Source: Flammeovirga sp. SJP92 (GTDB lineage: Bacteria; Bacteroidota; Bacteroidia; Cytophagales; Flammeovirgaceae). From it: a stretch of 64,000 nucleotides of DNA. Below the pieces are notes generated by a model. It was not told the origin of the DNA. It made no database searches and worked only from the letters and a program-made list of their open reading frames with translations. Made by a program: the position numbers and the translations under genes. Where the stretch lies: the NCBI RefSeq assembly GCF_001583495.1, contig NZ_LQAQ01000100.1, forward strand, positions 186,001 through 250,000. Reading direction: 5' to 3'. Within the stretch, counting starts at the first letter, position 1. Each line of letters starts with the position of its first letter. Shown piece by piece: positions 7,469 to 31,927 of this stretch.

Positions 7469-7526
7469 TTTTGTATACGCTTGCTCTAATCTTGTAAATC
7501 TTTCAAAAAATAGTCCCTGATCTTTG
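7469..7526 (+). promoter_or_regulatory. Class I tandem-repeat operator/promoter (site A, porin 1)
   Basis: Half-site 1 is TTTTGTATAC at 7469, preceded by TGCCGATA. Half-site 2 is TCTTGTAAATC at 7490, 21 bp on. The octamer GATCTTTG at 7519-7526 starts 29 bp after half-site 2. The porin ATG is 92 bp downstream. Confidence 0.7.
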
Positions 7527-7618
7527 TAATGTGATCGGAGCGTAATAGAAATGAATATTTATTCATCTATTCGTTTTGACTCAAAAATTACTGTTTACAA
7601 ACTATTTCAATTTCTATA

Positions 7619-8926
7619 ATGAAGAAGATTACAAGTTTAATGAAGTGGAGGCGTCTGTCTCAATACTTTATCATTATCAATTGCTGTTTACTTTCTTTTC
7701 AAACCTTAGCTCAAGAAAAGAAAGAAGATCTAGTGGGCGTCAAAGGGGCAATTAACCCTCAGCAGATGAATGCTAGACAATTAGTAGGACAAGAATTAAT
7801 CGATGATGCTTTTCCTAATTCCATTCCCATTTTTGGTTCGAAGTCGAGAATCAAGTTTGGTGGTTATGTGAAGATGGATTACATCCAAGATTTCAATTAT
7901 ATCGGTTCTGCTTATGAATTCGAAAGTGCTACAATTCCAATTAAAGGTTCACCTGAATCTTACCTTAAAGGTCAGTCTACATTCCATGCTAAAGAAACAC
8001 GTTTCAACGTTGACTTTAGAACGGTGGTTAAAGGACTAAGGTCTGGTAAGGAAATGCCATTACAAATTTTTATTGAAATGGATTTCTTTGAAGACGATCC
8101 TTCATTATATCGTCAACCACGTTTACGTCATGCCTATGGTGTATTTGGAAATATCCTTGCGGGTCAAACATGGTCTATTAATGCCGATTTAAGTGCAATT
8201 CCAGGTATTATTGACTTTGCAGGAGGTGATGGAACGTATGGCGATCGTGTAATTCAAATCCGTTGGACCGATAAAATCACAAAGAACTTAAGTTATACGG
8301 TAGGTATGGAAGGACCAAAAAGTGGTATCGATAACCCTTATGAATTAGAAGGAGTTGCACGCACTACTATGCCTACGTTTGCTGGTAATGTGAGATGGGA
8401 AATGAATAAGTTTTCCCATATGCAGTTAGGTGCTGATGTATTTCAACATCATTGGCAAGGCGGTCAATATGGCCCAACGCAAAAAGCGTATGGTTACGGT
8501 ATTAACCTAACAGGACGATTTGTATTGGACAAAAAACATCGTAATTCATTGATGTTTGGTGCCTCTACAGGTAAGGGTGCTGGACATAGAATATTATTCT
8601 TAGAGTTTTCCCCAAGTGATGGTGTGATTTCTGACAATCAATTGGAATTACTCAATGCCCATCAAGCTTATATCGGTTATAATCATTACTGGACGAAGAG
8701 CTTAAATACAACCGTTGCTGCTTATTATGCTTCATTGAATACAGTGGATTACCAACTAGACGAAACCACTCAACAAGGAGGTACATTCCACGCCAACCTA
8801 GTTTGGATGCCTTATACCAATGTATCATTTGGTGTAGAATATATGCACGGTGTTCACGTCGTAAAAGATGGAAGATACGGTCAGGCGAATCGTCTTCAGT
8901 TTATGACAAGATTTAGAATTCCTTAA
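7619..8926 (+). CDS. DcaP-like outer-membrane porin 1
   Basis: The product has 435 residues. It starts with a long signal peptide (about residues 1-32, cleaved near LAQEKK). A beta-barrel with the typical DcaP pattern follows: GGYVKMDYIQDF near the start of the barrel, KETRFNVDFRT, a FIEMDFF strand, RLRHAYGVFGNILAGQTWS, and an aromatic last strand. Family members are trimeric outer-membrane channels; DcaP itself takes up dicarboxylates. It is paralogous to the porin at 23772. It is the first gene behind the AraC regulator and has site A in front, so it is the likely entry port for the cluster's substrate. The substrate is not known. Confidence 0.8.
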   Translation: MKKITSLMKWRRLSQYFIIINCCLLSFQTLAQEKKEDLVGVKGAINPQQMNARQLVGQELIDDAFPNSIPIFGSKSRIKFGGYVKMDYIQDFNYIGSAYEFESATIPIKGSPESYLKGQSTFHAKETRFNVDFRTVVKGLRSGKEMPLQIFIEMDFFEDDPSLYRQPRLRHAYGVFGNILAGQTWSINADLSAIPGIIDFAGGDGTYGDRVIQIRWTDKITKNLSYTVGMEGPKSGIDNPYELEGVARTTMPTFAGNVRWEMNKFSHMQLGADVFQHHWQGGQYGPTQKAYGYGINLTGRFVLDKKHRNSLMFGASTGKGAGHRILFLEFSPSDGVISDNQLELLNAHQAYIGYNHYWTKSLNTTVAAYYASLNTVDYQLDETTQQGGTFHANLVWMPYTNVSFGVEYMHGVHVVKDGRYGQANRLQFMTRFRIP

Positions 8927-9008
8927 ATAAAATAATTGATGCTAAAAACAAGTATTGCAAACTAATTTTCGAATGTTTATACCATTTAGGTTTCTGAGAT
9001 CTTTTAAG

Positions 9009-9270
9009 CACGAATGACGTTATCACTTCAAATTCTAACCAATGAAAAGATTACAATTTTAGTTTGGTAGTACTTCCTTCGGCCTTGAAGGGAAAAGCGT
9101 GAAGAATTTCATGAAATGAGCCGTTAGAAATGATTTTGTTGTTTGAGCTTTAGCGAGTTTAAAATCATTTAGGCGAGAGTAATGGAATTTAGCTTTTGAC
9201 TTCTAAGCCTTGACTTTTTTGCTTCGTTTTTGTGTTAAGACAAAAATGAAGAAGAAAGAAGTTTGAAAGA
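9009..9270 (+). repeat. Dispersed non-coding repeat, copy R1
   Basis: About 260 bp matches 32459-32720, with shared blocks such as TTAGTTTGGTAGTAC, GGCCTTGAAGGGAAAAGCGT, GAATGGAATTTAGC-like text and TTTGCTTCGTTTTT. It contains a conserved hairpin, AAATGATTTT...AAAATCATTT, around 9129-9172. No open frame of note. It occupies most of the 534-bp gap between porin 1 and the first serine hydrolase; the rest of the gap is site D. Confidence 0.75.
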
Positions 9271-9348
9271 ATAATATAAAAGACTTGTAGATAGTCATAA
9301 TAATTTAGTTTGTATTAAAACAAGAGGTATTGAAAACGATTTCCGATT

Positions 9349-9406
9349 TCTTATAACTACAATCTCAAATCTTGTAAATCATTCAATTTCAATACCCTGA
9401 TATTTG
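9349..9406 (+). promoter_or_regulatory. Class I operator/promoter (site D, serine hydrolase 1)
   Basis: TTCCGATT precedes half-site 1 TCTTATAACT (9349). Half-site 2 TCTTGTAAATC is at 9370 (+21). The octamer GATATTTG is at 9399-9406 (+29). ATG follows 54 bp later. Confidence 0.7.
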
Positions 9407-9460
9407 TATCATCAACAAAACGAAAAATACATTTTAAATAAAAAATCAATCTAAAAGAAA

Positions 9461-10867
9461 ATGAAAAATCAAACAAAACGTTTCTCAACAGCTAAAAAAC
9501 AAATCATTAAATTTTCATCCATCTTATTGCCAATCAGCATGATGTTCAATACAAATTGTACTACTTCAAACGCTCAAGAAGAACATGAAGTAACAGTTCC
9601 AAAATCGGAAAAATATATTAGTAAAATTACAGAAGTTACTACTCCAATCTCTAAAGTGAAAGACGGTTTTCCATTAGATTTTATCAGAGAAACACATAGA
9701 AACTTCAGTACTCCCAATTGGCAGGCGGCAGGTGATCAATCAGTGTATATCAATATGAATATCCCAGAGTTTATCAATGTAGATATTGCAATGCCTACAC
9801 ATGAAGAACGTCATTTGGAGCGTAAAATTGATGCTGATTTAGGAAATACAAAATTCACTTTAGAAGACGGGTCTGAAACTCCTACTTTAAATGAATATCT
9901 AAATGATGATTACAATAGAGTACAAGGGATCATCATGGCACATAAAGGAAAAGTAATTTTTGAAGCTTATCCTGGTATGAAACCAACAGATTATCATGTA
10001 TGGATGTCCGCTTCGAAAACAACAGTAGGTACATTGGCGATCTTGCTGGAAAGTGAAGGGAAATTGGATCTTGAAAAACCAATTACTTATTACGCAAAAG
10101 AATTAGCCGGAACAGCTTGGGATAAAGTATCCGTGAAGAATGCTTTGAACATGGCTTCTGGTTTGGACTTAGAAGAAACAACAGCGGCGTTCTCTGATCC
10201 TAATAGCTGGATTGAACAGTATTTTGCTTCTTTATTCGATATTGAAGGAACAGGTGACGGTTGGATTGAGGTGATGCGTAGAGTAAAACCAATTGAAGGT
10301 GAAGAGCCAGGTGATCGTTTCCGTTATTCAACGGCCATTACACAAGCTTTAGTATTGGCAATAGAAAGTGCGACAGGTCAAGCTTACAAAGATGTATTCA
10401 ATGAAAAAATTTGGTCTCAAGTAGGTGTTCATAATCAGTTTATGGTGGGCTTAGCCTCCGATTACCATGCCGTGGGTGGTGGATTAGTCAACACTACTAT
10501 TGAAGATGCATTGAAATATGCTATGATGTATACACCTAGTTGGAATGTGGTATCTGATAAAAGAGTAGTTACGCCTGAGATCTTAGAAAGAATCAGAACT
10601 TTAGGCGATCCAAAAGCTTACCAAGGAAGTGAAGAGGAAGGATATAGCTTAGAATGGACTGGTGATATTGGCGAAAGAAACTCTGCACAGTGGGATCAAG
10701 TTTGGGCTGATGGAGCGATGTTCAAGCACGGTAACATGCACCAAGGTATTTATGTTGATGCTGATAGAGATTTCTGTGCGTTTGTATTTTCAAACACACC
10801 TAATGAAAGATCAGATAAAGCTCCAGGTTTTATGCGTGCAGTTGCGAAAAAAGTAGCTGATCAATAA
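9461..10867 (+). CDS. Exported serine hydrolase 1 (EstB / class C beta-lactamase-like)
   Basis: The product has 468 residues. An N-terminal basic and hydrophobic export signal runs to about residue 39 (NAQEEHE); a Cys at 33 might make it a lipoprotein, but the lipobox is poor. The PF00144-type domain shows the SxxK motif at S183-K186 (WMSASK) and the catalytic Tyr at Y289 (FRYST). Upstream is the typical HKGKVIFEAYPGM strand pair. Such enzymes act through a Ser acyl-enzyme on esters, amides or lactams (EstB, 6-aminohexanoate-dimer hydrolase, DD-peptidases). It is one of four paralogs in this cluster. Site D lies directly upstream, and a terminator of the shared GCTCATCA family follows. Confidence 0.85.
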   Translation: MKNQTKRFSTAKKQIIKFSSILLPISMMFNTNCTTSNAQEEHEVTVPKSEKYISKITEVTTPISKVKDGFPLDFIRETHRNFSTPNWQAAGDQSVYINMNIPEFINVDIAMPTHEERHLERKIDADLGNTKFTLEDGSETPTLNEYLNDDYNRVQGIIMAHKGKVIFEAYPGMKPTDYHVWMSASKTTVGTLAILLESEGKLDLEKPITYYAKELAGTAWDKVSVKNALNMASGLDLEETTAAFSDPNSWIEQYFASLFDIEGTGDGWIEVMRRVKPIEGEEPGDRFRYSTAITQALVLAIESATGQAYKDVFNEKIWSQVGVHNQFMVGLASDYHAVGGGLVNTTIEDALKYAMMYTPSWNVVSDKRVVTPEILERIRTLGDPKAYQGSEEEGYSLEWTGDIGERNSAQWDQVWADGAMFKHGNMHQGIYVDADRDFCAFVFSNTPNERSDKAPGFMRAVAKKVADQ

Positions 10868-10900
10868 GAAAATATAGATTTATTAAATAGGATAGTAATT

Positions 10901-10946
10901 AGCTCATCAGGAGAGGTCTACGGACTGATTCTGATGGGCTTTTTGT
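10901..10946 (+). terminator. Terminator of the shared GCTCATCA family
   Basis: AGCTCATCAG (10901-10910) pairs with CTGATGGGCT (10931-10940) using one G-T pair and is followed by a T run. An inner GTCTACGGAC loop stem is shared with the copies at 12817 and 14361. Confidence 0.85.
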
Positions 10947-10985
10947 TTATAAAAATTTTTGATGTAAAGGCGAAATTTAACGAAA

Positions 10986-11044
10986 TCGTGCAAGTAGAAT
11001 AAATATTTTGTACAAATAGTATGAAAATTAATTGAAGATCTTTG
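10986..11044 (+). promoter_or_regulatory. Degenerate class I operator/promoter (site E, amidohydrolase 1)
   Basis: TCGTGCAAGTAG at 10986 and TTGTACAAATAG at 11008 are repeated with 22 rather than 21 bp. The octamer GATCTTTG at 11037-11044 starts 29 bp after the second half. A 173-nt leader follows; nothing else is seen in this 350-bp gap apart from the terminator at 10901. Confidence 0.5.
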
Positions 11045-11217
11045 AGGCATAGAATGATACAAGCAGACTATCAATTATCACACAACTTAGGTGGGTTGAG
11101 TTAAAATGAAATCTCAATACAGCTACTGTCTTGAGACTAGGTTTACAACCTTTAAAAACTAAAACCAATTTAATGTAAACCAAAAGAGAATTTTAATAAC
11201 CAACAATTTAATTTATC

Positions 11218-12795
11218 ATGAAAAAGAATACACTAAAATCCATTGCTTTTGTGGCTTTATTTCTACTGTTTATAGGTTGTGATGATGCCGGAAATACGAA
11301 ACAAAAAACTACAGGTTTTGATGTCGTAATCTTGAACGGTAGAGTAATGGATCCAGAAACAGATTTTGACGAAATAAGAAATGTCGGCATTAAAGATGGT
11401 CAGATTGAAATCATTACTTTAGAGAATATCTCAGGAAAAGATACGATTGATGCCACTGGGCATGTGGTTGCTCCTGGTTTTATCGATATACATTCTCATA
11501 TTTCAGATGTTCCATTTGGACAAAAAATAAGTTTAAGAGATGGAGTGACTACGCCACTTGATATGGAGGCAGGTGCCTATCCTGTAGACAGTTGGTATGG
11601 AAAATTGGAAGGGAAGTCTCAGACCAATTATGGTGCAACCGTATCTGCTGCAGGAATTAGAGAGCAAATGGCTAATCCTCACTATGATACTAAAACGAGC
11701 TCTGTTTTATTAGATGCATTTGATCCACATAGTTGTAGTCACTTAGATATGCACTTTACCTCTTGGCGTCCAAATGATGCTGAAATCGATACCATGGAGC
11801 AAATGATGGAAGAGGGTTTAAGCCAAGGAGCAATAGGTATCGGCGCCGTGACAGGTTATATGACAAAAGGGACGACTAGCCGTGAAACGATGATGTGGCA
11901 AAGATTAATGGGTAAACATAATCTAGCAACTGTTTTACACGGAAGGTTTTCAAGTCAGAATCCACCAGCAACAGGTATTTTGGGAACTCAGGAAATGTTA
12001 GCTAGCCAAGCGGCTTACGGTGGTGGCCTTTACGTTTGCCATATTCATCAACAAGCTTTAAATCTAACACCCTATATTTTAGATTTAGTAGAAACTTGTA
12101 GAGAAAAAGGTCAAGATGCAGTCGCTGCAATTTATCCTTATTGGCAGGGGTCAACCATAGCAGGTGCAGATTATTTAAAGCCTGAAAACTATCAGGAAAA
12201 TATGGGACGTCATTTTGATGATATCATCGAAGTGGCAACAATGAAACATCTTACAAAAGAACGTTATGAAGAATTGATGAAAACCAATCCAGGAACCTCG
12301 GTGATCTTTGGAGGTGTAGAAGAACAAGTAATGTTGAAGGCTTTAGCGGATCCAAGAACAATGGTTGAATCGGATGCTGTGCCATTGACAATTACGGCTA
12401 CAGGAAACCTAGCGTTGGATTGGGATACACCTTATGAAAACTTACAAGGACATCCACGTGGAGCCGGTACGCATGCGAAGGTGTTAAGATTAGTAAGAGA
12501 GCAAAATCTAATGCCTTTGATGTTGGCGATCTCAAAAATGAGTTATATGCAAGCTCAGTTTTTAGAAGACAATGGATTGGATGTAATGGCAACAAAAGGT
12601 AGAATTCAAGAAGGTATGGATGCTGATATTACTATTTTCCATCCTGATCAAGTGAAAGATAATGCAACCTTCGAACAAGGAGGTTTACCGTCAACAGGTA
12701 TTCCTTATGTTCTTGTAAATGGAACCATTATCGTTAAAGATTCTAAGGTTCAAAAAGGAGTTTACCCAGGAAAACCGATTAAGAGTGTCTATTAA
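11218..12795 (+). CDS. Amidohydrolase lipoprotein, D-aminoacylase-like
   Basis: The product has 525 residues. A lipoprotein signal ends in FIGC with Cys21, followed by DDAGN; acidic residues right after the Cys are also seen in surface-exported Bacteroidota lipoproteins, so outer-face location is possible. The composite beta domain and TIM barrel follow: ATGHVVAPGFIDIHSH with metal ligands H92 and H94, GVTT, and C-terminal GMDADITIF. The barrel resembles N-acyl-D-amino-acid deacylases (COG3653). It would hydrolyse an amide bond with one or two bound divalent metals. It is the only amidohydrolase of the three with a lipobox. Terminator at 12817. Confidence 0.8.
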   Translation: MKKNTLKSIAFVALFLLFIGCDDAGNTKQKTTGFDVVILNGRVMDPETDFDEIRNVGIKDGQIEIITLENISGKDTIDATGHVVAPGFIDIHSHISDVPFGQKISLRDGVTTPLDMEAGAYPVDSWYGKLEGKSQTNYGATVSAAGIREQMANPHYDTKTSSVLLDAFDPHSCSHLDMHFTSWRPNDAEIDTMEQMMEEGLSQGAIGIGAVTGYMTKGTTSRETMMWQRLMGKHNLATVLHGRFSSQNPPATGILGTQEMLASQAAYGGGLYVCHIHQQALNLTPYILDLVETCREKGQDAVAAIYPYWQGSTIAGADYLKPENYQENMGRHFDDIIEVATMKHLTKERYEELMKTNPGTSVIFGGVEEQVMLKALADPRTMVESDAVPLTITATGNLALDWDTPYENLQGHPRGAGTHAKVLRLVREQNLMPLMLAISKMSYMQAQFLEDNGLDVMATKGRIQEGMDADITIFHPDQVKDNATFEQGGLPSTGIPYVLVNGTIIVKDSKVQKGVYPGKPIKSVY

Positions 12796-12816
12796 TTTAT
12801 AGAAATTAAATAGTTA

Positions 12817-12862
12817 AAAGCTCATCAGAAGAAGTCTGCGGACTGATTTTGATGGGCTTTTC
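12817..12862 (+). terminator. Terminator of the shared GCTCATCA family
   Basis: AAAAGCTCATCA (12817-12828) pairs with TGATGGGCTTTT (12850-12861). The inner stem is GTCTGCGGAC. It belongs to a duplicated terminator-operator cassette. Confidence 0.85.
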
Positions 12863-12893
12863 TTGTTATATCAAATAATCCAATCTGCCGACA

Positions 12894-12951
12894 TCTTGTA
12901 TACGCTTGCTTTTTTCTTGTAAATGATTCCACCCTCAAAGAAGGATATTTG
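12894..12951 (+). promoter_or_regulatory. Class I operator/promoter (site B, serine hydrolase 2)
   Basis: TGCCGACA precedes half-site 1 TCTTGTATAC (12894). Half-site 2 TCTTGTAAATG is at 12915 (+21). The octamer GATATTTG is at 12944-12951 (+29). ATG follows 34 bp later. Confidence 0.75.
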
Positions 12952-12985
12952 TATATCATTAATAATCAATCAAATTACTAAGAAA

Positions 12986-14407: not shown

Positions 14408-14435
14408 GTATAATTCTAAATTCAATCTGCCGAAA

Positions 14436-14493
14436 TTTTGTATACGCTTGCTCAGATCTTGTATATCATTCCTTCTAAAAACCATGACCTTTG
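14436..14493 (+). promoter_or_regulatory. Class I operator/promoter (site C, amidohydrolase 2 operon)
   Basis: TGCCGAAA precedes half-site 1 TTTTGTATAC (14436). Half-site 2 TCTTGTATATC is at 14457 (+21). The octamer GACCTTTG is at 14486-14493 (+29). Confidence 0.75.
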
Positions 14494-16222: not shown

Positions 16223-16226
16223 TAAG

Positions 16227-17794: not shown

Positions 17795-17830
17795 TATTGG
17801 TGTATGTCCCTTTGGTTCATTTTGCCCAAA

Positions 17831-17888
17831 TCATACAACCGCATGGAGATTTCTTGTAAATAGTTCGCTGATAAACAAAGCATCTTTG
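17831..17888 (+). promoter_or_regulatory. Class I operator/promoter (site F, TRIC-like gene)
   Basis: Half-site 1 TCATACAACC is at 17831, half-site 2 TCTTGTAAATAG at 17852 (+21), and the octamer CATCTTTG at 17881-17888 (+29). ATG follows 33 bp later. Confidence 0.7.
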
Positions 17889-17921: not shown

Positions 17922-18572
17922 ATGAACAATTTAGATATTTACTATACACTTGGTATGCTTGGAACTGTTGCATTTGCAGTGACGGCAGTATTGGCAGTTA
18001 TTCCAAAACAAATTGATTTATTCGGTGCTATCGTAATGGGTATTGTCACTGCCGTTGGTGGAGGAACCATTAGAGATATGATTTTGGGAGCGCCTGTCTT
18101 TTGGGCATCAGACCTTAATTATATATGGGTGGCAATTGCCTCAAGTATTGTTGCTTTTTATGGTAATCAATTTATGTCTAGAAAAAATATATATGCCCTA
18201 ATGCTTTATTTGGATGGCATCGGTATTGCCATGTTTGTGATTCAAGGAGCAGACAAAGCGTTGGCTTTGGACTTTGCATTGCCGGTAGGACCAGTCTTAT
18301 TAGGTTTGATTACTGCGATTGGAGGAGGTATTACCAGAGATGTATTAGCGGGGAATACGACGCTTTTATTGAAGAAAGAACTTTACGCACTGCCTTTGAC
18401 CTTTGGAGTAATCCTTTACTTAATATTGATTCAGGTGTTTCCTGAGAAAGTAAAATTACTGGGAACATTGTGTGCAACACTTACTTTCTTTATTCGTGCA
18501 GCTGCTATTCATTGGAAATTACATGTTCCAAAGTGGATGCTGACGCAAAAAAGGGGTATTTTCTCTAATTGA
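17922..18572 (+). CDS. TRIC/YicG-family membrane protein (UPF0126)
   Basis: The product has 216 residues and about seven membrane helices. It contains two copies of the family signature: GIVTAVGGGTIRDMILG and LITAIGGGITRDVLAG, each a glycine-rich kinked helix ending in RD. Such proteins form trimeric cation channels (prokaryotic TRIC); some members have been annotated as glycine transporters. The open frame extends upstream to 17784, but that would run through the operator, and the ATG at 17922 starts directly with the first hydrophobic segment. Its operator, site F, puts it in the same regulon as the hydrolases. Confidence 0.85.
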   Translation: MNNLDIYYTLGMLGTVAFAVTAVLAVIPKQIDLFGAIVMGIVTAVGGGTIRDMILGAPVFWASDLNYIWVAIASSIVAFYGNQFMSRKNIYALMLYLDGIGIAMFVIQGADKALALDFALPVGPVLLGLITAIGGGITRDVLAGNTTLLLKKELYALPLTFGVILYLILIQVFPEKVKLLGTLCATLTFFIRAAAIHWKLHVPKWMLTQKRGIFSN

Positions 18573-18577
18573 TCAAA

Positions 18578-18635
18578 ATGTGTCAATAGCTTATGCTTTC
18601 GTGTAAATAGTTTGATGTAAAACATGTGACATTTG
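18578..18635 (+). promoter_or_regulatory. Class I operator/promoter (site G, serine hydrolase 3)
   Basis: Half-site 1 ATGTGTCAATAG is at 18578, half-site 2 TCGTGTAAATAG at 18599 (+21), and the octamer GACATTTG at 18628-18635 (+29). Confidence 0.65.
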
Positions 18636-20075: not shown

Positions 20076-20136
20076 GTTTCGGGCAACATGGCTAGTTTTA
20101 ACTATGGAGTCCAAACATAAATTCATTTTGACCGAA

Positions 20137-20194
20137 TCTTGTAAATAGTAGAAAAGATCTTGTAAATAATTCAAGTGGCAACAAGTGATATTTG
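20137..20194 (+). promoter_or_regulatory. Class I operator/promoter (site H, serine hydrolase 4); best-matched half-sites
   Basis: Both half-sites are TCTTGTAAATA (20137 and 20158, exactly 21 bp apart). The octamer GATATTTG is at 20187-20194 (+29). This copy shows the direct-repeat nature most clearly. Confidence 0.8.
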
Positions 20195-23178: not shown

Positions 23179-23202
23179 GATATAGAATAAGTGTTGCCGA
23201 TT

Positions 23203-23260
23203 TTATACAACTACTTGCCGATATCTTATAACTCAAACCTTTTTCAATTGGTTAATTTTG
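23203..23260 (+). promoter_or_regulatory. Class I operator/promoter (site P1), no gene directly behind
   Basis: TTATACAACT (23203) and TCTTATAACT (23224, +21) are each preceded by TTGCCGAT. The octamer TAATTTTG at 23253-23260 (+29) is a perfect TAnnTTTG. The next coding start is the porin at 23772, with a second site between. Confidence 0.7.
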
Positions 23261-23395
23261 AAGTACCAAAAGAGTAGAGAGCATTCATATTCTTTTGAAT
23301 TAAGTTAAGTTGAAGAAAGCCCAAAAATAAAACTATTACTCTTTTTAGCAACCAGGTGAATTCATTACTAAACTATAGTATTTGAATTGACCTTT

Positions 23396-23453
23396 TTGTG
23401 TCATTCATAAATAAGACCGTGTAAATCATTGGGTAGCAATCTTTCTAGTTTTG
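23396..23453 (+). promoter_or_regulatory. Class I operator/promoter (site P2, porin 2)
   Basis: TTGTGTCATT (23396) and CCGTGTAAATC (23417, +21). The octamer TAGTTTTG at 23446-23453 (+29) is a perfect TAnnTTTG. The leader to the porin is 318 nt, much longer than for the other genes, because of the element at 23515-23700. Confidence 0.7.
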
Positions 23454-24983: not shown

Positions 24984-25356
24984 TTATATAATTGATCAAA
25001 ATATAAAAGAACTATAAAAATAAATCTAAAGTATTGTGTTAAACTATTACTAAGTCATGTAATTACAATCACTACTACTATGTTCAAAGTATAGGTATAA
25101 AAGATAATGTATAAGAGGATGTTCGGAATATATATTTTAGCAGTGAAAATTTCCAATTTCAGATTGTGGGAAAATTAATTTTAGAGAAAATAGTGGTCCT
25201 ATAATTGATGAAATTAATAAACTTACGTTTTGAAAGGGGGATTTTTTACTAAAAGAGATGTTTCAAACATGCTCTTACCTCTTCTATCAAATTTATGATG
25301 ACTTAGAAGAGTTGGCTTACTAATACTTAAGGAAATAAAGAGTATTAAAAATCCCT
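24984..25356. other. AT-rich gap without recognisable gene
   Basis: Between porin 2 and the strong hairpin at 25357 I see no frame with coding character and no known RNA. The terminator at the end, far from the porin stop, leaves room for a long 3' UTR or a small RNA. Confidence 0.4.
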
Positions 25357-25422
25357 AAACTCCCTTATCAAAAACTCAGGAGATAATATCCCTCTTGATT
25401 TTTGATAAGGGAGTTTTTTATA
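25357..25422 (+). terminator. Strong terminator, 18-bp perfect stem
   Basis: AAACTCCCTTATCAAAAA (25357-25374) pairs perfectly with TTTTTGATAAGGGAGTTT (25399-25416), followed by more T. The loop has its own small stem (AGGAGAT/ATCCCT). Confidence 0.9.
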
Positions 25423-25485
25423 TTCTCGCGATTCAAAATATAGTTTCCAATTACTCATCAATCAAAAACTACCAAATTGCCATTT

Positions 25486-25543
25486 TCTTTCAAGTACCTG
25501 ACGATTCTTTTCAATCCTTTCTTTTTGAAAATCAAGACCTTTG
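25486..25543 (+). promoter_or_regulatory. Class II operator/promoter (site J, MerC-like gene 2)
   Basis: Half-site 1 TCTTTCAAGT is at 25486, half-site 2 CTTTTCAATC at 25507 (+21), and the octamer GACCTTTG at 25536-25543 (+29). Confidence 0.6.
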
Positions 25544-25659
25544 TATTGTTCACTGATTGAAACACCAACAATTATAAATACTCTACTATTTAAGAGCACC
25601 ATTTAATTGGTTGGATAATCAAAACAGAAATCATCTTTCATCTTAAGAAATTGACAATT

Positions 25660-26079
25660 ATGTACGCTTTAAAAAGAGAATTCATTAAGTATACAGATCA
25701 AATCGGAATTACAGGATCATTTATTTGTTTGGTTCACTGCATTATTACTTCAGGAGTAATGATCGGTAGTTCATTCTTATCACATTCAGCACATCATCAT
25801 CACGATCACATTCATCATGTACACCATTTAGATATGTGGGGAATGATGGATATATCTATGATCGTTATTAGTGGTATAGCAGTTTACTTTTCTACTTTAA
25901 AATGCAGTGCAGAATCACTTCAAAATAAATTGATGTGGGCAAGTTATATCGTTTATACTATTTGTATGTTATCAAAATATGCAGGTTTTGAACCTATTTG
26001 GTTAAGCGGTCTATCTTATGCAATGTCATTTACATTGATTGGTCTACATTTTAGAAACATCAAAAACTGTAATCACTAG
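25660..26079 (+). CDS. MerC-like small membrane protein 2
   Basis: The product has 139 residues; it is a paralog of the gene at 17381 with the same DQIGITGSFICLVHC signature. The His-rich loop is longer (HHHHDHIHHVHH). It has about four membrane helices and a Cys/His end (NIKNCNH). An in-frame TTG three codons upstream (25651) is less likely than the ATG at 25660. Loop histidines suggest binding of a divalent metal; mercury is possible by family but nothing else of a mer operon is present. Unlike copy 1 it has its own operator, site J. Confidence 0.75.
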   Translation: MYALKREFIKYTDQIGITGSFICLVHCIITSGVMIGSSFLSHSAHHHHDHIHHVHHLDMWGMMDISMIVISGIAVYFSTLKCSAESLQNKLMWASYIVYTICMLSKYAGFEPIWLSGLSYAMSFTLIGLHFRNIKNCNH

Positions 26080-26108
26080 GATATTCGTCAATAAATTAGA
26101 TGAAAAAA

Positions 26109-27291
26109 CAAGTTGAAGTTTTCTTACAACATCCTGCGTTTTTCATTCAAGAGATTCCTTTTTTAAACCCTGATATTTGTAATGTAAACAATGAAGGAAA
26201 GATCGAAAAGGATTTAAAATCAAATCTTTATATAAAAACAAATTCAAAAATTTATCATTCGTCTGCAAAGACACAAAAATTAAAATTATGTCAGAAAGAA
26301 ATTACAAACCCGTACCAGTTTTCTCAATTAATCATGCTTCAATGCGCGTATCAAATCCAAAAATTATGGTGGAATGGTTACAAGGTATTTTTGGTTTCCC
26401 AATCGTTGCACGTCAAGGTGATAGCGTTGTATTTCGTATAGGTGATGGACCTCAATATTTTTCAATTTTAGGAGAACCAACAGATAAGCCAGGATATACA
26501 CACTTTGGATTTTCGGTAGAAGATTTTGATCCAAACGACTTTATCCAACGCTTAAAATCATTAGGTTATGAGCAGTCAAATTATCCAGATGCAGGTAAAT
26601 TTACATTAAGAAATAGAGGTACAGATAAAGGTGGTGCTGTAGAAGGTACACCCGAATTATTTATCGGTGATCCAGATGGCTTAATTGTTCAAATTCAAGA
26701 TGCAAAATATGCCGGCGGTGGCGGACTTTTGGGTGATGTAACTTATGCAATTCCAGAGGAAGCACCAACAAAAGGATTGGTAGATACGATTGAGTTAAAT
26801 CACTGTACACTTGGGGTTTCTAACGGAGCAGAGTCTTTAAAATTCTATCAAAGCATTTTTGATCTTCCAGTAGATACTTATCAAGGTCCAACACCTGTTT
26901 TGAGAGTGGGTACAGGCAATGCTTCATTGGTATTGTATGAATTAAGCGGTCCAGAAGCAAAAGGCGTTAAACCTCGTATTGACCATACTTGTTTTGCTGT
27001 GAAAGATTTTGATGTGAACCGCATTGAGAAAGATCTTGGAGAGTTTGGAATGAATGTTTTAGGTCAGGCTTGGAGAGCAACAGGTCCATTGCAAACGTAC
27101 TACACACAGCGTATGCCTGATCGAGGTGGTGATGCTAGTGGAGATACCAAAGAGTTGTATTTAACGGATTTTGATAATAATGTGATTCAACTACAAGACA
27201 TCCGTTACGCTGGTGGTTGTGGTGCATTAGGTGACGTTCGTGGAACTGGCGTAGACAAACCATTTGAGCCATGTGGTTGTGGTATGCACTA
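26109..27291 (+). repeat. Duplicated segment, copy 1 (operator + leader + VOC gene)
   Basis: This segment of about 1.2 kb is repeated in the same orientation at about 28839-30022. The match covers site K/M, the untranslated leader (differing at scattered bases) and the complete VOC gene. Confidence 0.9.
26122..26179 (+). promoter_or_regulatory. Class II operator/promoter (site K, VOC gene 1)
   Basis: Half-site 1 TCTTACAACA is at 26122, half-site 2 TCATTCAAGAG at 26143 (+21), and the octamer GATATTTG at 26172-26179 (+29). Confidence 0.75.
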
Positions 27292-27292
27292 G
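26288..27292 (+). CDS. Two-domain VOC (glyoxalase/extradiol-dioxygenase fold) metalloenzyme 1
   Basis: The product has 334 residues and no signal peptide. There are two homologous VOC domains. Each shows the metal triad His-His-Glu: H16, H72, E123 in the first and H172, H233, E289 in the second. Each ends with a related tail (QIQDAKYAGGGGLLGDV and QLQDIRYAGGCGALGDV), so the protein arose by internal duplication. The C-terminus is FEPCGCGMH, a possible extra metal site. VOC enzymes include extradiol dioxygenases, HPPD-like oxygenases, lyases and resistance proteins; the reaction here is open. Two intact triads are unusual, since two-domain dioxygenases normally keep one. A near-identical copy is at 29018. 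Confidence 0.8.
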   Translation: MSERNYKPVPVFSINHASMRVSNPKIMVEWLQGIFGFPIVARQGDSVVFRIGDGPQYFSILGEPTDKPGYTHFGFSVEDFDPNDFIQRLKSLGYEQSNYPDAGKFTLRNRGTDKGGAVEGTPELFIGDPDGLIVQIQDAKYAGGGGLLGDVTYAIPEEAPTKGLVDTIELNHCTLGVSNGAESLKFYQSIFDLPVDTYQGPTPVLRVGTGNASLVLYELSGPEAKGVKPRIDHTCFAVKDFDVNRIEKDLGEFGMNVLGQAWRATGPLQTYYTQRMPDRGGDASGDTKELYLTDFDNNVIQLQDIRYAGGCGALGDVRGTGVDKPFEPCGCGMH

Positions 27293-27322
27293 GAGATAAA
27301 TAGTATTAAGTTAAAAAAATAG

Positions 27323-27365
27323 ACCCTTTCTGTAGTTATTCAACAACTATGGGAAGGGTTTTGTA
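27323..27365 (+). terminator. Terminator after VOC gene 1
   Basis: ACCCTTTC (27323-27330) pairs with GGAAGGGT (27352-27359), followed by TTT. The loop carries a further TAGTT/AACTA stem. Confidence 0.75.
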
Positions 27366-27432
27366 TTTTATTTAAAAACAAGAAAATCAATCAGTTAATA
27401 GTGTTTTTTACTTTAAATCACTTTTGACGATT

Positions 27433-27490
27433 TCTCACAACTACTTACATTTTTCTTTCAAGAGATTCCTTTTTTCAACCCTGATATTTG
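27433..27490 (+). promoter_or_regulatory. Class II operator/promoter (site L, SMP-30-like gene)
   Basis: TTGACGATT precedes half-site 1 TCTCACAACT (27433). Half-site 2 TCTTTCAAGAG is at 27454 (+21) and the octamer GATATTTG at 27483-27490 (+29). Confidence 0.75.
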
Positions 27491-27567
27491 TAATGTAATC
27501 AAAAGGGAAATCAACTTCTTTTTGAAACATCATTTTGAAAAAAAATAAACTTTAAAAAAACAGAATT

Positions 27568-28626
27568 ATGAAAACAGTAGAACAATTCATGTCGAACGCC
27601 AAATTTAATATCGGTCTTTATAACGTAGAAGATATCATTCAAATACCAGGTACTAACTGGATCGTTGGTGGAGGCATTACTTGTTATGGTCCTAATTTTT
27701 GGGATAAAGTAATTACAACAGGTTTTTGGCATTTATTTGACGCTGAAAAAGAAACAGGATTTAGAGTAGATTCTTCAACTATTGAAATAGCACCTGAAGG
27801 AGATCGTTTCCCATTGGCTACACCTCCGGTATGGAATGCATTTAGTCCTCACGGATTTGATTTCTATAACCAAACCGAAACTACTATTGAAGTGTATGTG
27901 GCAAGTCATAAAAGTGCTACAGGTGAAAGTAGAGAAGCTGTTGAGGTGTTTAGAATTGACTATTCTAAAGAAATTCCAACTTTCACATGGATTGGAGGTA
28001 TTGAAGTAGCAGAAGATTTCTGGCCAGATGCAGTAGCCTTATTACCGGATGGTGGTGTAGTTGCAACATCGACAGGAAATCCATTAATGCCACAAGAAGA
28101 GTCCATCAAATTAGCGCTTTCAGGTGCACCGATTGGAAATACAAGAGTGTGGTATAAATCAACAGGTTGGCAAGAATTAGAGGGATCGGAAGGCATCTCC
28201 ACACCAAACGGAATTGTCATATCAAAAGATGGGCAACAAATATATGTGGCAGCATCAACAGGTTTTTCAGTTGTAAAAATAGACCGAAGTGTATCGCCTG
28301 TCAAAGTAACATCGATGGACTTAGGAGGTATTCCTGATAACCTTCGTTGGTCAGAAGATGGAAAATCAATTTTGGCAGGTATTCATGTCGTAGAGAATCC
28401 AATGGATTTTGCCAAAGAACAGGAAGTGGCTGCAGAATACGGAGGTAACCAAATGACAGCCTTTAAAGTAACACGTATCAATCCTGAAACACTTGAGTTG
28501 ACTGAGGTTATGCCTCCAGCCGTATATGGTGTTTTAGGAGCAGGAACAAGTGCAATAGAAGTAGGAAATCGTATATGGGTAGGAAGTACAAAATCCGACC
28601 GTGTAGGGATTTTCGATTTGAAATAA
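27568..28626 (+). CDS. SMP-30/lactonase-like beta-propeller protein
   Basis: The product has 352 residues and no signal peptide. Propeller-like repeats are visible: SPHGFDFYN, WPDAVALLPDGGVVATS, TPNGIVISKDGQQIYVAAS, IPDNLRWSEDGKSILAG, and a closing NRIWVGSTKSDRVGIFDL strand. The pattern TPNGIVIS followed later by PDNLRW matches the Asn/Asp metal ligands of SMP-30, gluconolactonase and paraoxonase-type propellers, which open lactones with a bound divalent cation. It lies between the two VOC copies with its own operator (site L), so a ring-opening or lactone step linked to the VOC reaction is plausible but unproven. Confidence 0.7.
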   Translation: MKTVEQFMSNAKFNIGLYNVEDIIQIPGTNWIVGGGITCYGPNFWDKVITTGFWHLFDAEKETGFRVDSSTIEIAPEGDRFPLATPPVWNAFSPHGFDFYNQTETTIEVYVASHKSATGESREAVEVFRIDYSKEIPTFTWIGGIEVAEDFWPDAVALLPDGGVVATSTGNPLMPQEESIKLALSGAPIGNTRVWYKSTGWQELEGSEGISTPNGIVISKDGQQIYVAASTGFSVVKIDRSVSPVKVTSMDLGGIPDNLRWSEDGKSILAGIHVVENPMDFAKEQEVAAEYGGNQMTAFKVTRINPETLELTEVMPPAVYGVLGAGTSAIEVGNRIWVGSTKSDRVGIFDLK

Positions 28627-28649
28627 TTAGATAGCAATTTTCATTTTTT

Positions 28650-28684
28650 AGAGGCTGTATCAATATGATATAGTCTCTTTTTTT
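28650..28684 (+). terminator. Terminator after SMP-30-like gene
   Basis: AGAGGCTGTATCA (28650-28662) pairs with TGATATAGTCTCT (28666-28678) with G-T pairs, followed by a long T run. Confidence 0.8.
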
Positions 28685-28685
28685 T

Positions 28686-28718
28686 GTAGGGATGTTGCAT
28701 TGCAACGTCCGCCGAACC
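28686..28718. repeat. REP-like palindrome, second copy
   Basis: GTAGGGATGTTGCATTGCAACG is the reverse complement of the end of the element at 23515-23700 (core GTTGCAATGCAAC). Confidence 0.6.
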
Positions 28719-28852
28719 ACTTTACAAACCATTCCCATAACATAAGCATTTGTCCATATAAATTAGAATAAGTTGGCTAAAAAAATGATCTATGATATAG
28801 TGTAATGTATTGATATTCAAATAATTGAATTGATTAAACCAACTTGAAGTTT

Positions 28853-28910
28853 TCTTACAACATCCTGCTTTTTTCATTCAAGAGATTCCTTTTTTAAACC
28901 CTGATATTTG
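28853..28910 (+). promoter_or_regulatory. Class II operator/promoter (site M, VOC gene 2)
   Basis: Half-site 1 TCTTACAACA is at 28853, half-site 2 TCATTCAAGAG at 28874 (+21), and the octamer GATATTTG at 28903-28910 (+29). Duplicate of site K. Confidence 0.75.
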
Positions 28911-29017
28911 TAATGTAAACAATGAGGGAAAGGCCGAAAAGGTTTTAAACTCAAAGCTTTACAAATAACAAGTTCAAAAATTTATCATTCGTCTGCAAAG
29001 ACACAAAAATTAAAATT

Positions 29018-30022
29018 ATGTCAGAAAAAAATTACAAACCCGTACCAGTTTTCTCAATTAATCATGCTTCAATGCGCGTTTCAAATCCTAAAAGAATGGT
29101 GGAGTGGTTACAAGGTATTTTTGGTTTCCCTATCGTAGCACGTCAAGGCGATAGCGTTGTATTCCGTGTAGGTGATGGACCTCAATATTTTTCAATTTTA
29201 GGCGAGCCAACAGATAAGCCAGGTTATACACACTTTGGATTTTCGGTAGAAGATTTTGATCCAAACGACTTTATCCAACGCTTAAAATCATTAGGTTATG
29301 AGCAGTCAAATTATCCAGATGCAGGTAAATTTACATTAAGAAATAGAGGTACAGATAAAGGAGGTGCTGTAGAAGGTACACCCGAATTATTTATCGGTGA
29401 TCCTGATGGAATTATTCTTCAAATTCAAGATGCAAAATATGCAGGTGGTAGCGGACTTTTAGGTGATGTAACTTATGCAATTCCAGAGGAAGCACCAACA
29501 AAAGGTTTAGTTGATACTATCGAATTGAATCACTGTACACTTGGTGTATCTAATGGAGCAGAGTCTTTAAAATTCTATCAAAGCATTTTTGATCTACCAG
29601 TAGATACTTACCAAGGTCCAACACCTGTTTTGAGAGTGGGTACAGGCAATGCTTCATTGGTATTGTACGAATTAAGCGGACCGGAAGCAAAAGGCGTTAA
29701 ACCTCGTATTGATCATACTTGTTTTGCTGTAAAAGATTTCGATGTAAACCGTATTGAGAAAGATCTTGGAGAGTTTGGAATGAATGTTTTAGGTCAGGCA
29801 TGGAGAGCGACAGGTCCATTGCAAACGTACTACACACAGCGTATGCCTGATCGTGGTGGCGATGCAAATGGTGACACAAAAGAATTGTACTTAACGGATT
29901 TCGATAATAATGTGATTCAGCTACAAGACATTCGTTATGCTGGTGGTTGTGGTGCATTAGGTGACGTTCGTGGAACTGGCGTCGATAAACCATTTGAACC
30001 TTGTGGTTGTGGTATGCACTAG
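29018..30022 (+). CDS. Two-domain VOC metalloenzyme 2 (recent duplicate)
   Basis: The product has 334 residues and differs from the copy at 26288 by only about eight residues, for example SEKN for SERN at the start, RMVEW for IMVEW, IILQIQ for LIVQIQ and GGSG for GGGG. All six His/Glu ligands and the CGCGMH tail are kept, so both copies should be active. DNA changes are mostly silent, consistent with a fairly recent duplication under selection or gene conversion. It ends at a terminator shared with the convergent AraC gene. Confidence 0.8.
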   Translation: MSEKNYKPVPVFSINHASMRVSNPKRMVEWLQGIFGFPIVARQGDSVVFRVGDGPQYFSILGEPTDKPGYTHFGFSVEDFDPNDFIQRLKSLGYEQSNYPDAGKFTLRNRGTDKGGAVEGTPELFIGDPDGIILQIQDAKYAGGSGLLGDVTYAIPEEAPTKGLVDTIELNHCTLGVSNGAESLKFYQSIFDLPVDTYQGPTPVLRVGTGNASLVLYELSGPEAKGVKPRIDHTCFAVKDFDVNRIEKDLGEFGMNVLGQAWRATGPLQTYYTQRMPDRGGDANGDTKELYLTDFDNNVIQLQDIRYAGGCGALGDVRGTGVDKPFEPCGCGMH

Positions 30023-30043
30023 GATATAAGTAATTCAAATTAT

Positions 30044-30082
30044 AAAACCCTCTTGATAATCATTTTCATTCAAGAGGGTTTT
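30044..30082. terminator. Bidirectional terminator between VOC gene 2 and AraC gene
   Basis: AAAACCCTCTTGA (30044-30056) pairs perfectly with TCAAGAGGGTTTT (30070-30082). Confidence 0.9.
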
Positions 30083-30103
30083 CTTTATGTAAAGTAGTGG
30101 TTA

Positions 30104-31093
30104 TTATAACTTTCCTTTATCCTTCTTTTCCTTCAATTCAGAGGGAGCATAGCCATAGTATTTTTTAAATACATTACTCATATGGGCATTATCACTGAAA
30201 TTCAAATCCATTGAAACCTCCGTCAAACTTTTATCCGTATAAATAATTTGTCGGTAGACTTCTTCTATCTTTTGTTGCTTATAAAATTGAAGAATAGGTT
30301 GATCAAAAATTGATTTGAAAATTCGATTCAACTTCGAAATACTCATACCAAACTCATCACTTAAATCTGATAAGTTAGGTTGTTCAGAAAAATTAGAAAG
30401 ATACTCATCCTTTAGTTGCATCATTGCTTTGAGGTCTTCAGGGTGAATGTTCTTTTTGACATTCGTACCCTCATGTTCCAATTTTTCTTGGATAATACCC
30501 ACAATATCTAATGCCTTACTGAAAAAGTAAATATCTCTTCTTTTGTCTTTATCGACGTTCGCGATAATGGTACGTACAAAGTTTTCGATTTCTACATCAA
30601 GCGGGAGGTAATGGAACCAAGGAGTGTTATTTTGAAAAAGAGCCTTGATTTTAGAGTTTGCATTTTCTCGTGTGAATTGATTGAAAAAGTCTACAGAAAA
30701 CCGGATAGTAACGTATTCATATTTTGCTCCATAAGGAAGCTCGATCTCAAATTGTTGAGAAGAGTTGTAGATAAATACGCCCAGATTATGAAATTTTTTG
30801 GTGTCCCCTTTACTGAAGAAAGATCCTGTAAAACCGATACGTATACTGATATAAGTTTTATCTTCATCAGGTTCATATTTTACGGTAATTGGTCTTTTAG
30901 AATTGAGTTCAAAAATACCTACATACATTTCTTCTAAGAAACAGAAAGAATGTCCTTTATAAGTACACCAACCTGTGTCGATATTAAGTTCCTCACCATC
31001 CCAAGTACCTTTTAAATCCTTGGCAAATTTCTCATAGCTTCCGTGAACTGTATGTTCACTTGTCTCAAACGTATACTTATCTTCCATTTCCAA
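30104..31093 (-). CDS. AraC-family transcriptional activator (candidate regulator, class II sites)
   Basis: The product has 329 residues and is paralogous to the AraC protein at 6406. The N-terminal domain is diverged but shares SYEKFAKDLKGTWDGEEL near the start. The C-terminal DNA-binding domain spans about 225-320: LSDEFGMSISKLNRIF for the first HTH, LTEVSMDLNFSDNAHMSNVF for the second, then YGYAPSE. The recognition helices differ from the first paralog in several positions, which fits two related but distinct target sets. It is transcribed leftward, divergent from the gene at 31299, with site N between them. Its position among class II sites makes it the likely activator of these; this is an inference. 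Confidence 0.85.
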   Translation of the reverse strand: MEMEDKYTFETSEHTVHGSYEKFAKDLKGTWDGEELNIDTGWCTYKGHSFCFLEEMYVGIFELNSKRPITVKYEPDEDKTYISIRIGFTGSFFSKGDTKKFHNLGVFIYNSSQQFEIELPYGAKYEYVTIRFSVDFFNQFTRENANSKIKALFQNNTPWFHYLPLDVEIENFVRTIIANVDKDKRRDIYFFSKALDIVGIIQEKLEHEGTNVKKNIHPEDLKAMMQLKDEYLSNFSEQPNLSDLSDEFGMSISKLNRIFKSIFDQPILQFYKQQKIEEVYRQIIYTDKSLTEVSMDLNFSDNAHMSNVFKKYYGYAPSELKEKKDKGKL

Positions 31094-31166
31094 AAATTTG
31101 TCCTTATTAAAGATACCAAAGAAAATGTATCCGTATGCATTTTTCTAGAAAATAAAGTTGACGATT

Positions 31167-31224
31167 TCACACAACTCTATAATTTTTTTCATCAAGAGAT
31201 TCCTTTCTGTAAATCAGATCTTTG
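31167..31224 (+). promoter_or_regulatory. Class II operator/promoter (site N, membrane protein gene)
   Basis: TTGACGATT precedes half-site 1 TCACACAACT (31167). Half-site 2 TTCATCAAGAG is at 31188 (+21) and the octamer GATCTTTG at 31217-31224 (+29). It lies between the divergent AraC gene and the gene at 31299, so it could also serve autoregulation. Confidence 0.7.
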
Positions 31225-31298
31225 TAGTGTATTCAAGAAATGAAAAGTACTTTTTGATACATCATTATTGAAATAACAAACAGAGAAATAAATTTATT

Positions 31299-31808
31299 AT
31301 GAAACTCAATATTCAAGGTGTCAATCGAAAATTTCATAGAATTAATGGAAAGCTTTATGAACTATTTGAAATTTTGGATGAACAGGGGAAAATACTTAGA
31401 ACCATTGATATTCCACTTAAAGTTGAATTCAGGATTAATGACCTTTTGGAAATTATTGTAGGTGCAAGTATTCTGGCGGTACCCACTGCATTCACGGAAG
31501 AAGTTTGGACTATGGGAGATGAATTACCGTGGCTAAATACATTCCTTTTAAGTGTAATATCCATCGTATTTATAGCCGGCTTTGTTTATTATTCCTCTTA
31601 CAAAATGCGACTTAAGCTATTCAAAAAAGAATTTGTAATTAGAATACTTTCTACCTTTATTTTATCTGTGATGATTGTAGGAATATTACTTACTGTAGTC
31701 AATAAATGTCCTTGGTTTTTAGATTTTAATTTAGCCTTAAAACGTACTTTAATTGGTGCTTTTCCGGCATCTCTGAGTGCAACTTTGACAGATCAGTTTG
31801 GGGAATAA
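31299..31808 (+). CDS. Small membrane protein, DUF2391/TIGR02587-like
   Basis: The product has 169 residues. A polar N-terminal stretch of about 48 residues precedes four probable membrane segments (around 50-68, 80-100, 110-132, 145-162), with TAFTEEVW after the first. The size and the phrase ILAVPTAFTEEVW remind me of DUF2391 integral membrane proteins, but the match is from memory and not strong. Site N puts it in the regulon. Its stop codon is immediately followed by a porin-gene relic. Confidence 0.5.
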   Translation: MKLNIQGVNRKFHRINGKLYELFEILDEQGKILRTIDIPLKVEFRINDLLEIIVGASILAVPTAFTEEVWTMGDELPWLNTFLLSVISIVFIAGFVYYSSYKMRLKLFKKEFVIRILSTFILSVMIVGILLTVVNKCPWFLDFNLALKRTLIGAFPASLSATLTDQFGE

Positions 31809-31847
31809 ATGTCAAGAGTGCAGTTTATGACCAAATTTGATTTTTAG
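31809..31847 (+). pseudogene. 3' relic of a DcaP-like porin gene
   Basis: Directly after the stop at 31806-31808 the frame reads M-SRVQFMTKFDF-stop. SRVQFMTKFDF matches the end of porin 2 (NRVQFMTKFDF-stop, just before 24984) at 10 of 11 residues, and the DNA agrees closely. This looks like the surviving tail of a third porin gene replaced by the class II module or the membrane-protein gene. Confidence 0.65.
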
Positions 31848-31869
31848 TAGCAATTGGTTTTAGACCAGA

Positions 31870-31927
31870 ATATACAAATGCTTGACATTTTTATGTAAAT
31901 GATTCATGAATGAAACCATGATCTTTG
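31870..31927 (+). promoter_or_regulatory. Class I-like operator/promoter (site O, small secreted protein)
   Basis: Half-site 1 ATATACAAAT is at 31870, half-site 2 TTATGTAAATG at 31891 (+21), and the octamer GATCTTTG at 31920-31927 (+29). By sequence it belongs with the left-hand sites although it lies beyond the second AraC gene. Confidence 0.65.

What the first reader, a model, noticed from the sequence alone, without database searches (positions are those of the whole stretch)
7469..31927. A regulon-like set of sixteen tandem-repeat promoters with fixed 21-bp and 29-bp geometry
Fifteen sites show two half-sites exactly 21 bp apart and a -7 octamer starting exactly 29 bp after the second half-site: half-site 1 starts at 7469, 9349, 12894, 14436, 17831, 18578, 20137, 23203, 23396, 25486, 26122, 27433, 28853, 31167 and 31870. 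A sixteenth (10986) fits with 22 bp. The left-hand consensus is TTGCCGATATCTTATAACT followed by TCTTGTAAATCATT. 21 bp is two helical turns and is the I1-I2 repeat spacing of AraC. The second half-site covers the -33 region, and most octamers have G or C at the first position and no TTG at the usual 19 bp, as expected for activator-dependent promoters. Nearly every gene or operon in the cluster has one. I know of no described regulon with this combination.
Basis: partly seen in the sequence, partly recalled or inferred. Interest (0 to 1): 0.92.

Follow-up and report, generated by a model that had tools for sequence, protein, structure and literature searches.

The report
Tandem AraC-activator promoters in Flammeovirga
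A marine bacterium appears to switch on neighbouring gene clusters through a family of AraC-type activators, each reading its own version of one rigid two-repeat promoter layout; the layout is of a known kind, but this family of switches was not found in the open papers searched.

Summary
The 15 sites listed with exact 21/29-bp geometry are real: top 15 hits of a whole-window matrix scan, with nothing comparable in Markov sequence. The sixteenth (10986) is not a site; another lies at 6292, minus strand. Genome-wide, sites cluster beside paralogues of the two window AraC proteins (16 of 24 sites outside the window within 5 kb, 0.87 expected). Strong sites and this AraC family occur in the same 10 of 58 genomes, own included. 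With spacing left free, 159 of 161 matches keep exactly 21 and 29 bp. The two half-sites covary between regulator groups. The window holds two regulons, not one: AraC-1 (7469-23396, 31870) and AraC-2 (25486-31167), the latter on a 6.8-kb insert shared with another genus. Best explanation: one-component AraC activators bind the tandem repeat and activate from over the -33 region. Tandem 21-bp AraC-domain motifs are already described for Bacteroides hybrid two-component systems, so the kind is known. Less expected is a GAnnTTTGTAnnnTnATC core, rare in the control promoters. Against: 23 of 59 family regulators fetched have no assigned site. Nothing was tested at the bench.

The parts
6400..7374 (+). 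AraC-1, cupin-like N-domain plus AraC DNA-binding domain
   Evidence: Pfam HTH_18 2.8e-19; AlphaFold model, mean pLDDT 84.2; Foldseek hits to AraC-type regulators
30104..31093 (-). AraC-2, 44% identical to AraC-1
   Evidence: HTH_18 1.4e-17; alignment
6235..6301 (-).
   Evidence: score 29.6, E 2.9e-6, class; comparable site in 4 other genomes
7460..7526 (+). tandem site + octamer (half-site 7469), DcaP porin; AraC-1 class
9340..9406 (+). tandem site + octamer (9349), beta-lactamase-fold hydrolase; AraC-1 class
12885..12951 (+). tandem site + octamer (12894), beta-lactamase-fold hydrolase; AraC-1 class
14427..14493 (+). tandem site + octamer (14436), amidohydrolase, then CobW and MerC genes; best with the C100b sister class, AraC-1 second by 2.3
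17822..17888 (+). tandem site + octamer (17831), Gly_transporter-family membrane protein; AraC-1 class
18569..18635 (+). tandem site + octamer (18578), beta-lactamase-fold hydrolase; AraC-1 class
20128..20194 (+). tandem site + octamer (20137), beta-lactamase-fold hydrolase, then amidohydrolase; AraC-1 class
23194..23260 (+). tandem site + octamer (23203), 512 bp before the second DcaP porin; AraC-1 class by a small margin (3.5 over the C19 class)
23387..23453 (+). tandem site + octamer (23396), second site before the same porin; weakest of the 15; AraC-1 class
25477..25543 (+). tandem site + octamer (25486), MerC-family protein; AraC-2 class
26113..26179 (+). tandem site + octamer (26122), glyoxalase/dioxygenase-fold protein; AraC-2 class
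27424..27490 (+). tandem site + octamer (27433), SMP-30-like protein (below the Pfam cut-off); AraC-2 class
28844..28910 (+). tandem site + octamer (28853), second glyoxalase/dioxygenase-fold protein; AraC-2 class
31158..31224 (+). tandem site + octamer (31167), between the divergent AraC-2 and DUF2391 genes; AraC-2 class
31861..31927 (+). tandem site + octamer (31870), protein of 159 aa or less without a Pfam match; AraC-1 class; outside the AraC-2 insert
24985..31814 (.). inserted AraC-2 module (regulator, targets, five AraC-2-class sites); the porin 3' end occurs on both sides (29 of 34 bases alike)
   Evidence: absent from L128 and L137, 90.7% DNA identity to a genome of another genus; edges

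Best explanation
These are class-II-type activator-dependent promoters. A one-component AraC-family protein (cupin-like domain plus two helix-turn-helix motifs) binds two tandem copies of a bipartite site, A-box TTG[AC]CGA and B-box TCTTgYAA, 21 bp apart on one face of the helix. The second B-box takes the place of the missing -33 element, so the bound protein can contact sigma/RNA polymerase at a weak -7 element (GAnnTTTG) exactly 29 bp downstream. Each paralogue with sites controls mainly its own neighbourhood and often, probably, its own divergent promoter; in the window AraC-1 and AraC-2 each control a set. Shown by sequence: reality, geometry, co-occurrence, co-localisation, half-site covariation, two classes. 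Inferred: binding by these proteins, activation, an unknown small-molecule inducer, which HTH reads which box.
For: Outside the window 16 of 24 sites lie within 5 kb of one of 28 AraC-1-like genes, 0.87 expected; 8 of 12 clusters (from the lists). The same 10 of 58 genomes, own included, have strong sites (best E at most 9.5e-10) and family proteins at E 1e-40. Of 296 genomes drawn over the phylum, own included, only the own one has a match at E 1e-6. 159 of 161 gapped matches are exactly 21/29, Markov control 0. B-box 1 and B-box 2 covary over 11 regulator groups (p 5e-5, the lowest the test can give), A-boxes too (p 1.5e-4). In four own-genome loci outside the window (L068, L069, L070, L072) 12 of 12 sites score best with the class made from their orthologous loci in other genomes (descent contributes). 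121 of 147 octamers lie within 150 bp of a same-strand ATG frame, 7.8% of random positions do; 5 of 155 lie inside a frame of over 150 aa. 20 of 37 regulators with a site in 7 kb have a divergent one (score 24 or more) within 200 bp of their own open frame.
Against: No binding or expression data. Of 59 family DNA-binding domains fetched, 23 have no assigned site (score 33, 6 kb), and 15 of 24 clades have none, so the sites go with part of the family only. 65 of 155 sites at score 33 were not assigned to a regulator. 4 of 12 clusters outside the window have no AraC-1-like gene within 5 kb. Helix-to-box correlation is weak: of 8 Mantel tests only HTH1/A-box 1 reaches p 0.022, uncorrected; HTH2/B-box 2 p 0.09. 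Boxes within one group are not uniform. 23203 and 23396 are weak or far from their gene.
Confidence: 0.83

Rival explanations
1. The sites are read by a special sigma factor or another shared factor; the AraC genes are only neighbours.
For: The octamer and the downstream TTTGTAnnnTnATC element stay alike while B-boxes differ; the same core occurs under other upstream sequences in the genome; a group of three sites recurs in five loci with no AraC-domain gene in the 18-20 kb read (L071, L100, L109, L132, L142); 23 of 59 family regulators have no assigned site.
Against: The upstream half has the AraC bipartite tandem layout and differs by regulator group, both half-sites changing together; proximity to AraC genes; same genomes.
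Confidence: 0.09
2. One regulator controls all window sites; the second AraC is unrelated or redundant.
For: The two proteins are 44% identical with nearly the same HTH1 helix; 23203 scores 40.7 with AraC-1 and 28.4 with AraC-2.
Against: Five sites prefer AraC-2 by 17-34 bits over the next class. AraC-2 loci of three other genomes (L091, L117, L097), apart from AraC-1, carry the same TTCAA/ATCAA-type boxes by eye; the L128 and L137 stretches lack the module but keep AraC-1-type sites.
Confidence: 0.1
3. The likeness is by descent: copied promoter cassettes, without selection on binding.
For: 26122 and 28853 and their genes are duplicates; AraC-2-class sites are alike in the spacer too (0.68).
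Against: AraC-1-class flanks and spacer are at background identity while boxes are conserved; geometry kept across paralogues and two genera.
Confidence: 0.03

Closest known systems
Hybrid two-component (HTCS) regulons of Bacteroides thetaiotaomicron (Ravcheev et al. 2013, PMC3878776; abstract and passages seen)
   Same: AraC-type DNA-binding domain, Bacteroidota, direct repeats with an average distance of 21 bp, paralogues regulating adjacent genes, similar domains with similar motifs
   Different: Those are sensor-kinase hybrids at polysaccharide loci; here soluble one-component proteins, a fixed distance to the octamer and an extended core. The passages seen give no distance to the -7 element
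XylS/Pm of Pseudomonas putida (PMC5481539, passages seen)
   Same: Two 15-bp direct repeats, each a box A and a box B, bound by the two HTH motifs; overlap with the polymerase site is seen there only as a reference title; the 21-bp period is recalled
   Different: Other box sequences and sigma factors; one promoter system
AraC of E. coli at araI1-I2 (recalled, not looked up)
   Same: 21-bp tandem half-sites, class II activation, divergent regulator gene
   Different: No looping site was looked for here; inducer unknown

Membership tests
AraC/XylS transcription factors | C-terminal domain with two HTH motifs (HTH_18) | tested here: met
   Pfam; PDB profile hits SoxS, MarA, AraC; model
AraC/XylS transcription factors | N-terminal ligand or dimerisation domain | tested here: inconclusive
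   Cupin-like fold in the model; no Pfam match to the N-domain of AraC-1; ligand and dimerisation untested
AraC/XylS class II activated promoter | Tandem bipartite sites about 21 bp apart, the proximal one over the -35/-33 region | tested here: met
AraC/XylS class II activated promoter | Regulator binds the site and activates transcription | not testable with these tools
   Needs footprint and expression data
Bacteroidota sigma-ABfr promoter | TAnnTTTG at -7 | tested here: not met
   First base T in 17, G in 125, C in 9, A in 1 of 152 sites; the A at position 2 in 152. Consensus from PMC7366714 (passages seen)
Bacteroidota sigma-ABfr promoter | TTG/TTTG at -33 | tested here: not met
   TTG 18-21 bp upstream of the octamer in 2 of 152
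Hybrid two-component system | Sensor kinase and receiver domains fused to the AraC domain | tested here: not met
   324- and 329-aa proteins with HTH domains only, apart from a PAS_3 hit below its cut-off in AraC-2

The most novel reading that the evidence does not exclude
Flammeovirga has an activator-dependent core promoter type, GAnnTTTGTAnnnTnATC, in which contacts downstream of the octamer make up for the missing -33 element, and which different activators plug into at fixed distances. AraC modules (regulator, targets and matching sites) move between genera as self-contained units because only this core and the 21/29 geometry must be kept.
Probability: 0.3. Interest if true: 0.65.

Novelty: new variant of a known kind. 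Interest (0 to 1): 0.55.

Why it matters
About 150 natural sites in one register, 90 of them assigned to eleven groups of related AraC proteins, form a ready data set for asking how AraC proteins choose DNA. The sites predict regulons for a genus where two open-paper searches showed no regulon work (listings only), and point to a promoter core in Bacteroidota that differs from the standard consensus. The AraC-2 module looks like a regulator that travels with its own target promoters.

Tried and rejected
10986 as a site: rejected on score. Downstream element as a third, inverted AraC half-site: the minus strand reads TTGAT..TTACAA but 2 bp shorter than the unit, and by eye it does not follow B-box class; not favoured, not excluded. 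A clear HTH-to-box code: not significant after correction. A pattern search for the second operator family gave 7 matches against 4 in the reversed control and says nothing. Rfam at gathering scores: none of its families in 5900-36000. NCBIfam for ten cluster proteins: one hit above its cut-off (amidohydrolase 11218, NF006560), the rest below, so no substrate. In one search several regulator helices were misaligned; only its site lists are used, the helices come. In one search the next-gene distances of 12894 (1616) and 31870 (2604) are wrong because an earlier in-frame ATG overlaps the site; I read the starts as about 12986 and 31985 from the sequence.

Full report
Observation. The 15 coordinates given as exact are exact. 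A matrix built from them and run over both strands of the window ranks them 1 to 15; the only other hit at 8 or above is 6292 on the minus strand at 29.6; ten Markov sequences of equal length give none at 8 or above. Leave-one-out scores are 10.7 to 65.9, lowest for 23396.

Whole genome. A sequence-only profile of the 15 sites (R1) gives 40 matches at E up to 0.004 in the 8.49-Mb genome: the 15, 6292, and 24 outside the window (150 of 12,529 first-look candidates were scored). AraC-1 has 57 matches in the genome, 28 with E up to 1e-15. Of the 24 outside sites 16 lie within 5 kb of one of these 28; 0.87 are expected; 8 of 12 clusters. The four clusters without one are on C89 (3 sites), C15, C93 and C61; in the stretches read (L071, L075, L076, L082) the only AraC-domain gene is one 11 kb from the site in L076.

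Relatives. At E up to 1e-40 the AraC family occurs in 10 of 58 genomes, own included: nine of genus g1 and G012 of genus g5. Site matches at E up to 0.001 occur in 18 of 58; in the 10 with the protein the best E is 9.5e-10 or lower, in the other 8 there is one match each, best 4.5e-5. Among 296 genomes drawn over the phylum only the own has a match at 1e-6. Named records put the family in Flammeovirga: AraC-1 is 98% identical to a protein of F. aprica ATCC 23126 (ten loci found there, all Flammeovirga).

Geometry. In the window and 80 fetched stretches (chosen because they hold R1 matches or family AraC genes) there are 155 sites at score 33 or more, 152 of them distinct; orthologous sites of several genomes count apart. 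With both spacings free by 8 bases either way, 161 matches reach the threshold; 159 are 21/29, one 21/30, one 21/33; Markov versions of the same sequences give none. The matrix came from fixed-spacing sites, which sets the content of each block but not the distance between blocks.

Regulator and site. 90 of the 155 sites lie within 6 kb of a family regulator in the same stretch and were assigned to the nearest; 36 of 59 family DNA-binding domains fetched got one or more; 9 of 24 clades at 80% identity have sites. So part of the family goes with these sites and part does not. At 86% identity the regulators with sites form 11 groups. Box 1 and box 2 of a group resemble each other beyond chance for B (p 5e-5) and A (p 1.5e-4), as expected if one protein reads both. 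HTH1 helices (mean distance 0.23) vary less than HTH2 helices (0.49); A-box 1 varies least among boxes (0.095; A-box 2 0.113, B-boxes 0.125 and 0.133). Helix-to-box correlation is not significant after correction (8 tests, lowest p 0.022). Commonest B-boxes by eye: AraC-1 TCTTGTAAA; AraC-2 TCATTCAAG; C19 group TCGTACAAA; C63 group TTCTCTAAA; C44 group TCTTAAAAA. Groups also hold deviating boxes: the C19 group has TCTTGTAAA, the C63 group TTATGTAAA.

Two regulons in the window. Classes built from other genomes assign 10 of 16 window sites to AraC-1, five (25486-31167) to AraC-2, and 14436 to a sister class by 2.3 bits with AraC-1 second; several AraC-1 margins over that sister class are small (4-10 bits). 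The AraC-2 stretch matches G012 at 90.7% DNA identity over 6,372 aligned positions; the longest blocks of congeners G002 and G008 are at 85.0 and 84.7%. In F. aprica (L128) and OC4 (L137) it is absent: the porin end is followed directly by what lies at 31815, and in the window the last 34 bases of the porin recur there, 29 of 34 alike. The glyoxalase-fold protein occurs in 4 of 7 genomes searched, 99% identical in G012 and 95% in G002 and G008, while the U32 peptidase at 33105 is 75% in G012 against 99-100% in G002, G004 and G008. AraC-2 itself is 93.6% to G012 and 95.7% and 94.5% to G002 and G008, so not every gene favours G012, and only one reference gene was used. Transfer between genera is the likely reading.

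Promoter core. The first octamer base is G in 125 of 152, the second A in 152 of 152. TTTGTA...T.ATC is present in 68 of 152 sites and in 1 of 155 TAnnTTTG sequences upstream of frames in the same stretches; 64 of the 68 have the G. The control set was picked by sequence, not by mapped starts, and only 21 of its 155 have a TTG at -33, so it surely holds non-promoters and the contrast is rough. In the own genome GANNTTTGTANNNTNATCA has 21 matches against 1 in the reversed control. Eleven are AraC-type tandem sites; four (L164, L166, L177, L178) share, by eye, a TATAAATACT...AGTATTTATAC operator or a degraded form; L158 has CTGCAAT twice, 21 bp apart; the other five show nothing obvious. So the core may be read by RNA polymerase or a shared factor. 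The transcription start is not mapped.

Protein. The model of AraC-1 (22-sequence alignment, mean pLDDT 84.2) has a beta-rich N-domain and an AraC domain. Foldseek's best chains are full-length AraC-type regulators (ToxT, CsvR, Rns, CuxR) with poor whole-chain superposition (rmsd about 17); separate AraC domains (MarA, AdpA; TM 0.73 and 0.80 by target) and cupins also match. Targets are DcaP-type porins, beta-lactamase-fold hydrolases, amidohydrolases, MerC, CobW and glyoxalase-fold proteins: perhaps catabolism or detoxification of an unknown compound, not settled.

Known or new. XylS (PMC5481539) and the HTCS motifs of B. thetaiotaomicron (PMC3878776) have the tandem layout. Passages of PMC12125979 and PMC11253607 were also seen; the first describes a XylR-like AraC-domain regulator with direct repeats in another bacterium. 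Ten paper searches, judged from listings, showed no paper on such a regulon in Flammeovirga; the library holds open-licence papers only.

Noticed in passing
window 6050-6232, minus strand; L128, L137, L110, L095: The site at 6292 points away from AraC-1 into a stretch of about 180 nt without a good frame, ending at a strong hairpin (z -2.8). The stretch is similar in L128, L137 and L110; in L095 a reading frame follows instead. Possible regulated small RNA or relic of a lost gene.
   Followed up: partly
L164, L166, L177, L178 (own genome C34, C61, C103, C116): The same promoter core under an inverted-repeat operator TATAAATACT...AGTATTTATAC; the frames behind two of them look MACPF-like (L166) and aegerolysin-like (L178) by eye, not by a family search.
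   Followed up: partly
L158 1444-1520: CTGCAAT twice, 21 bp apart, before the same core; perhaps another AraC-type regulon.
   Followed up: no
own genome C63:199651-200601; G004:C72: The regulator match of the C63 class holds a stop in the own genome and in G004, though its site is kept; real or an assembly error.
   Followed up: no
window 9009-9291 and 32459-32738: A repeated intergenic element, pieces 76-96% identical, near both ends of the cluster.
   Followed up: no
window 10885-10943, 12803-12861, 14346-14404: Three similar (78-83% to the first) terminator-like stretches after neighbouring genes.
   Followed up: no
L071, L100, L109, L132, L142: A conserved group of three sites in five genomes with no AraC-domain gene in the 18-20 kb read; the L071 copies score nearest to the AraC-1 class.
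   Followed up: partly
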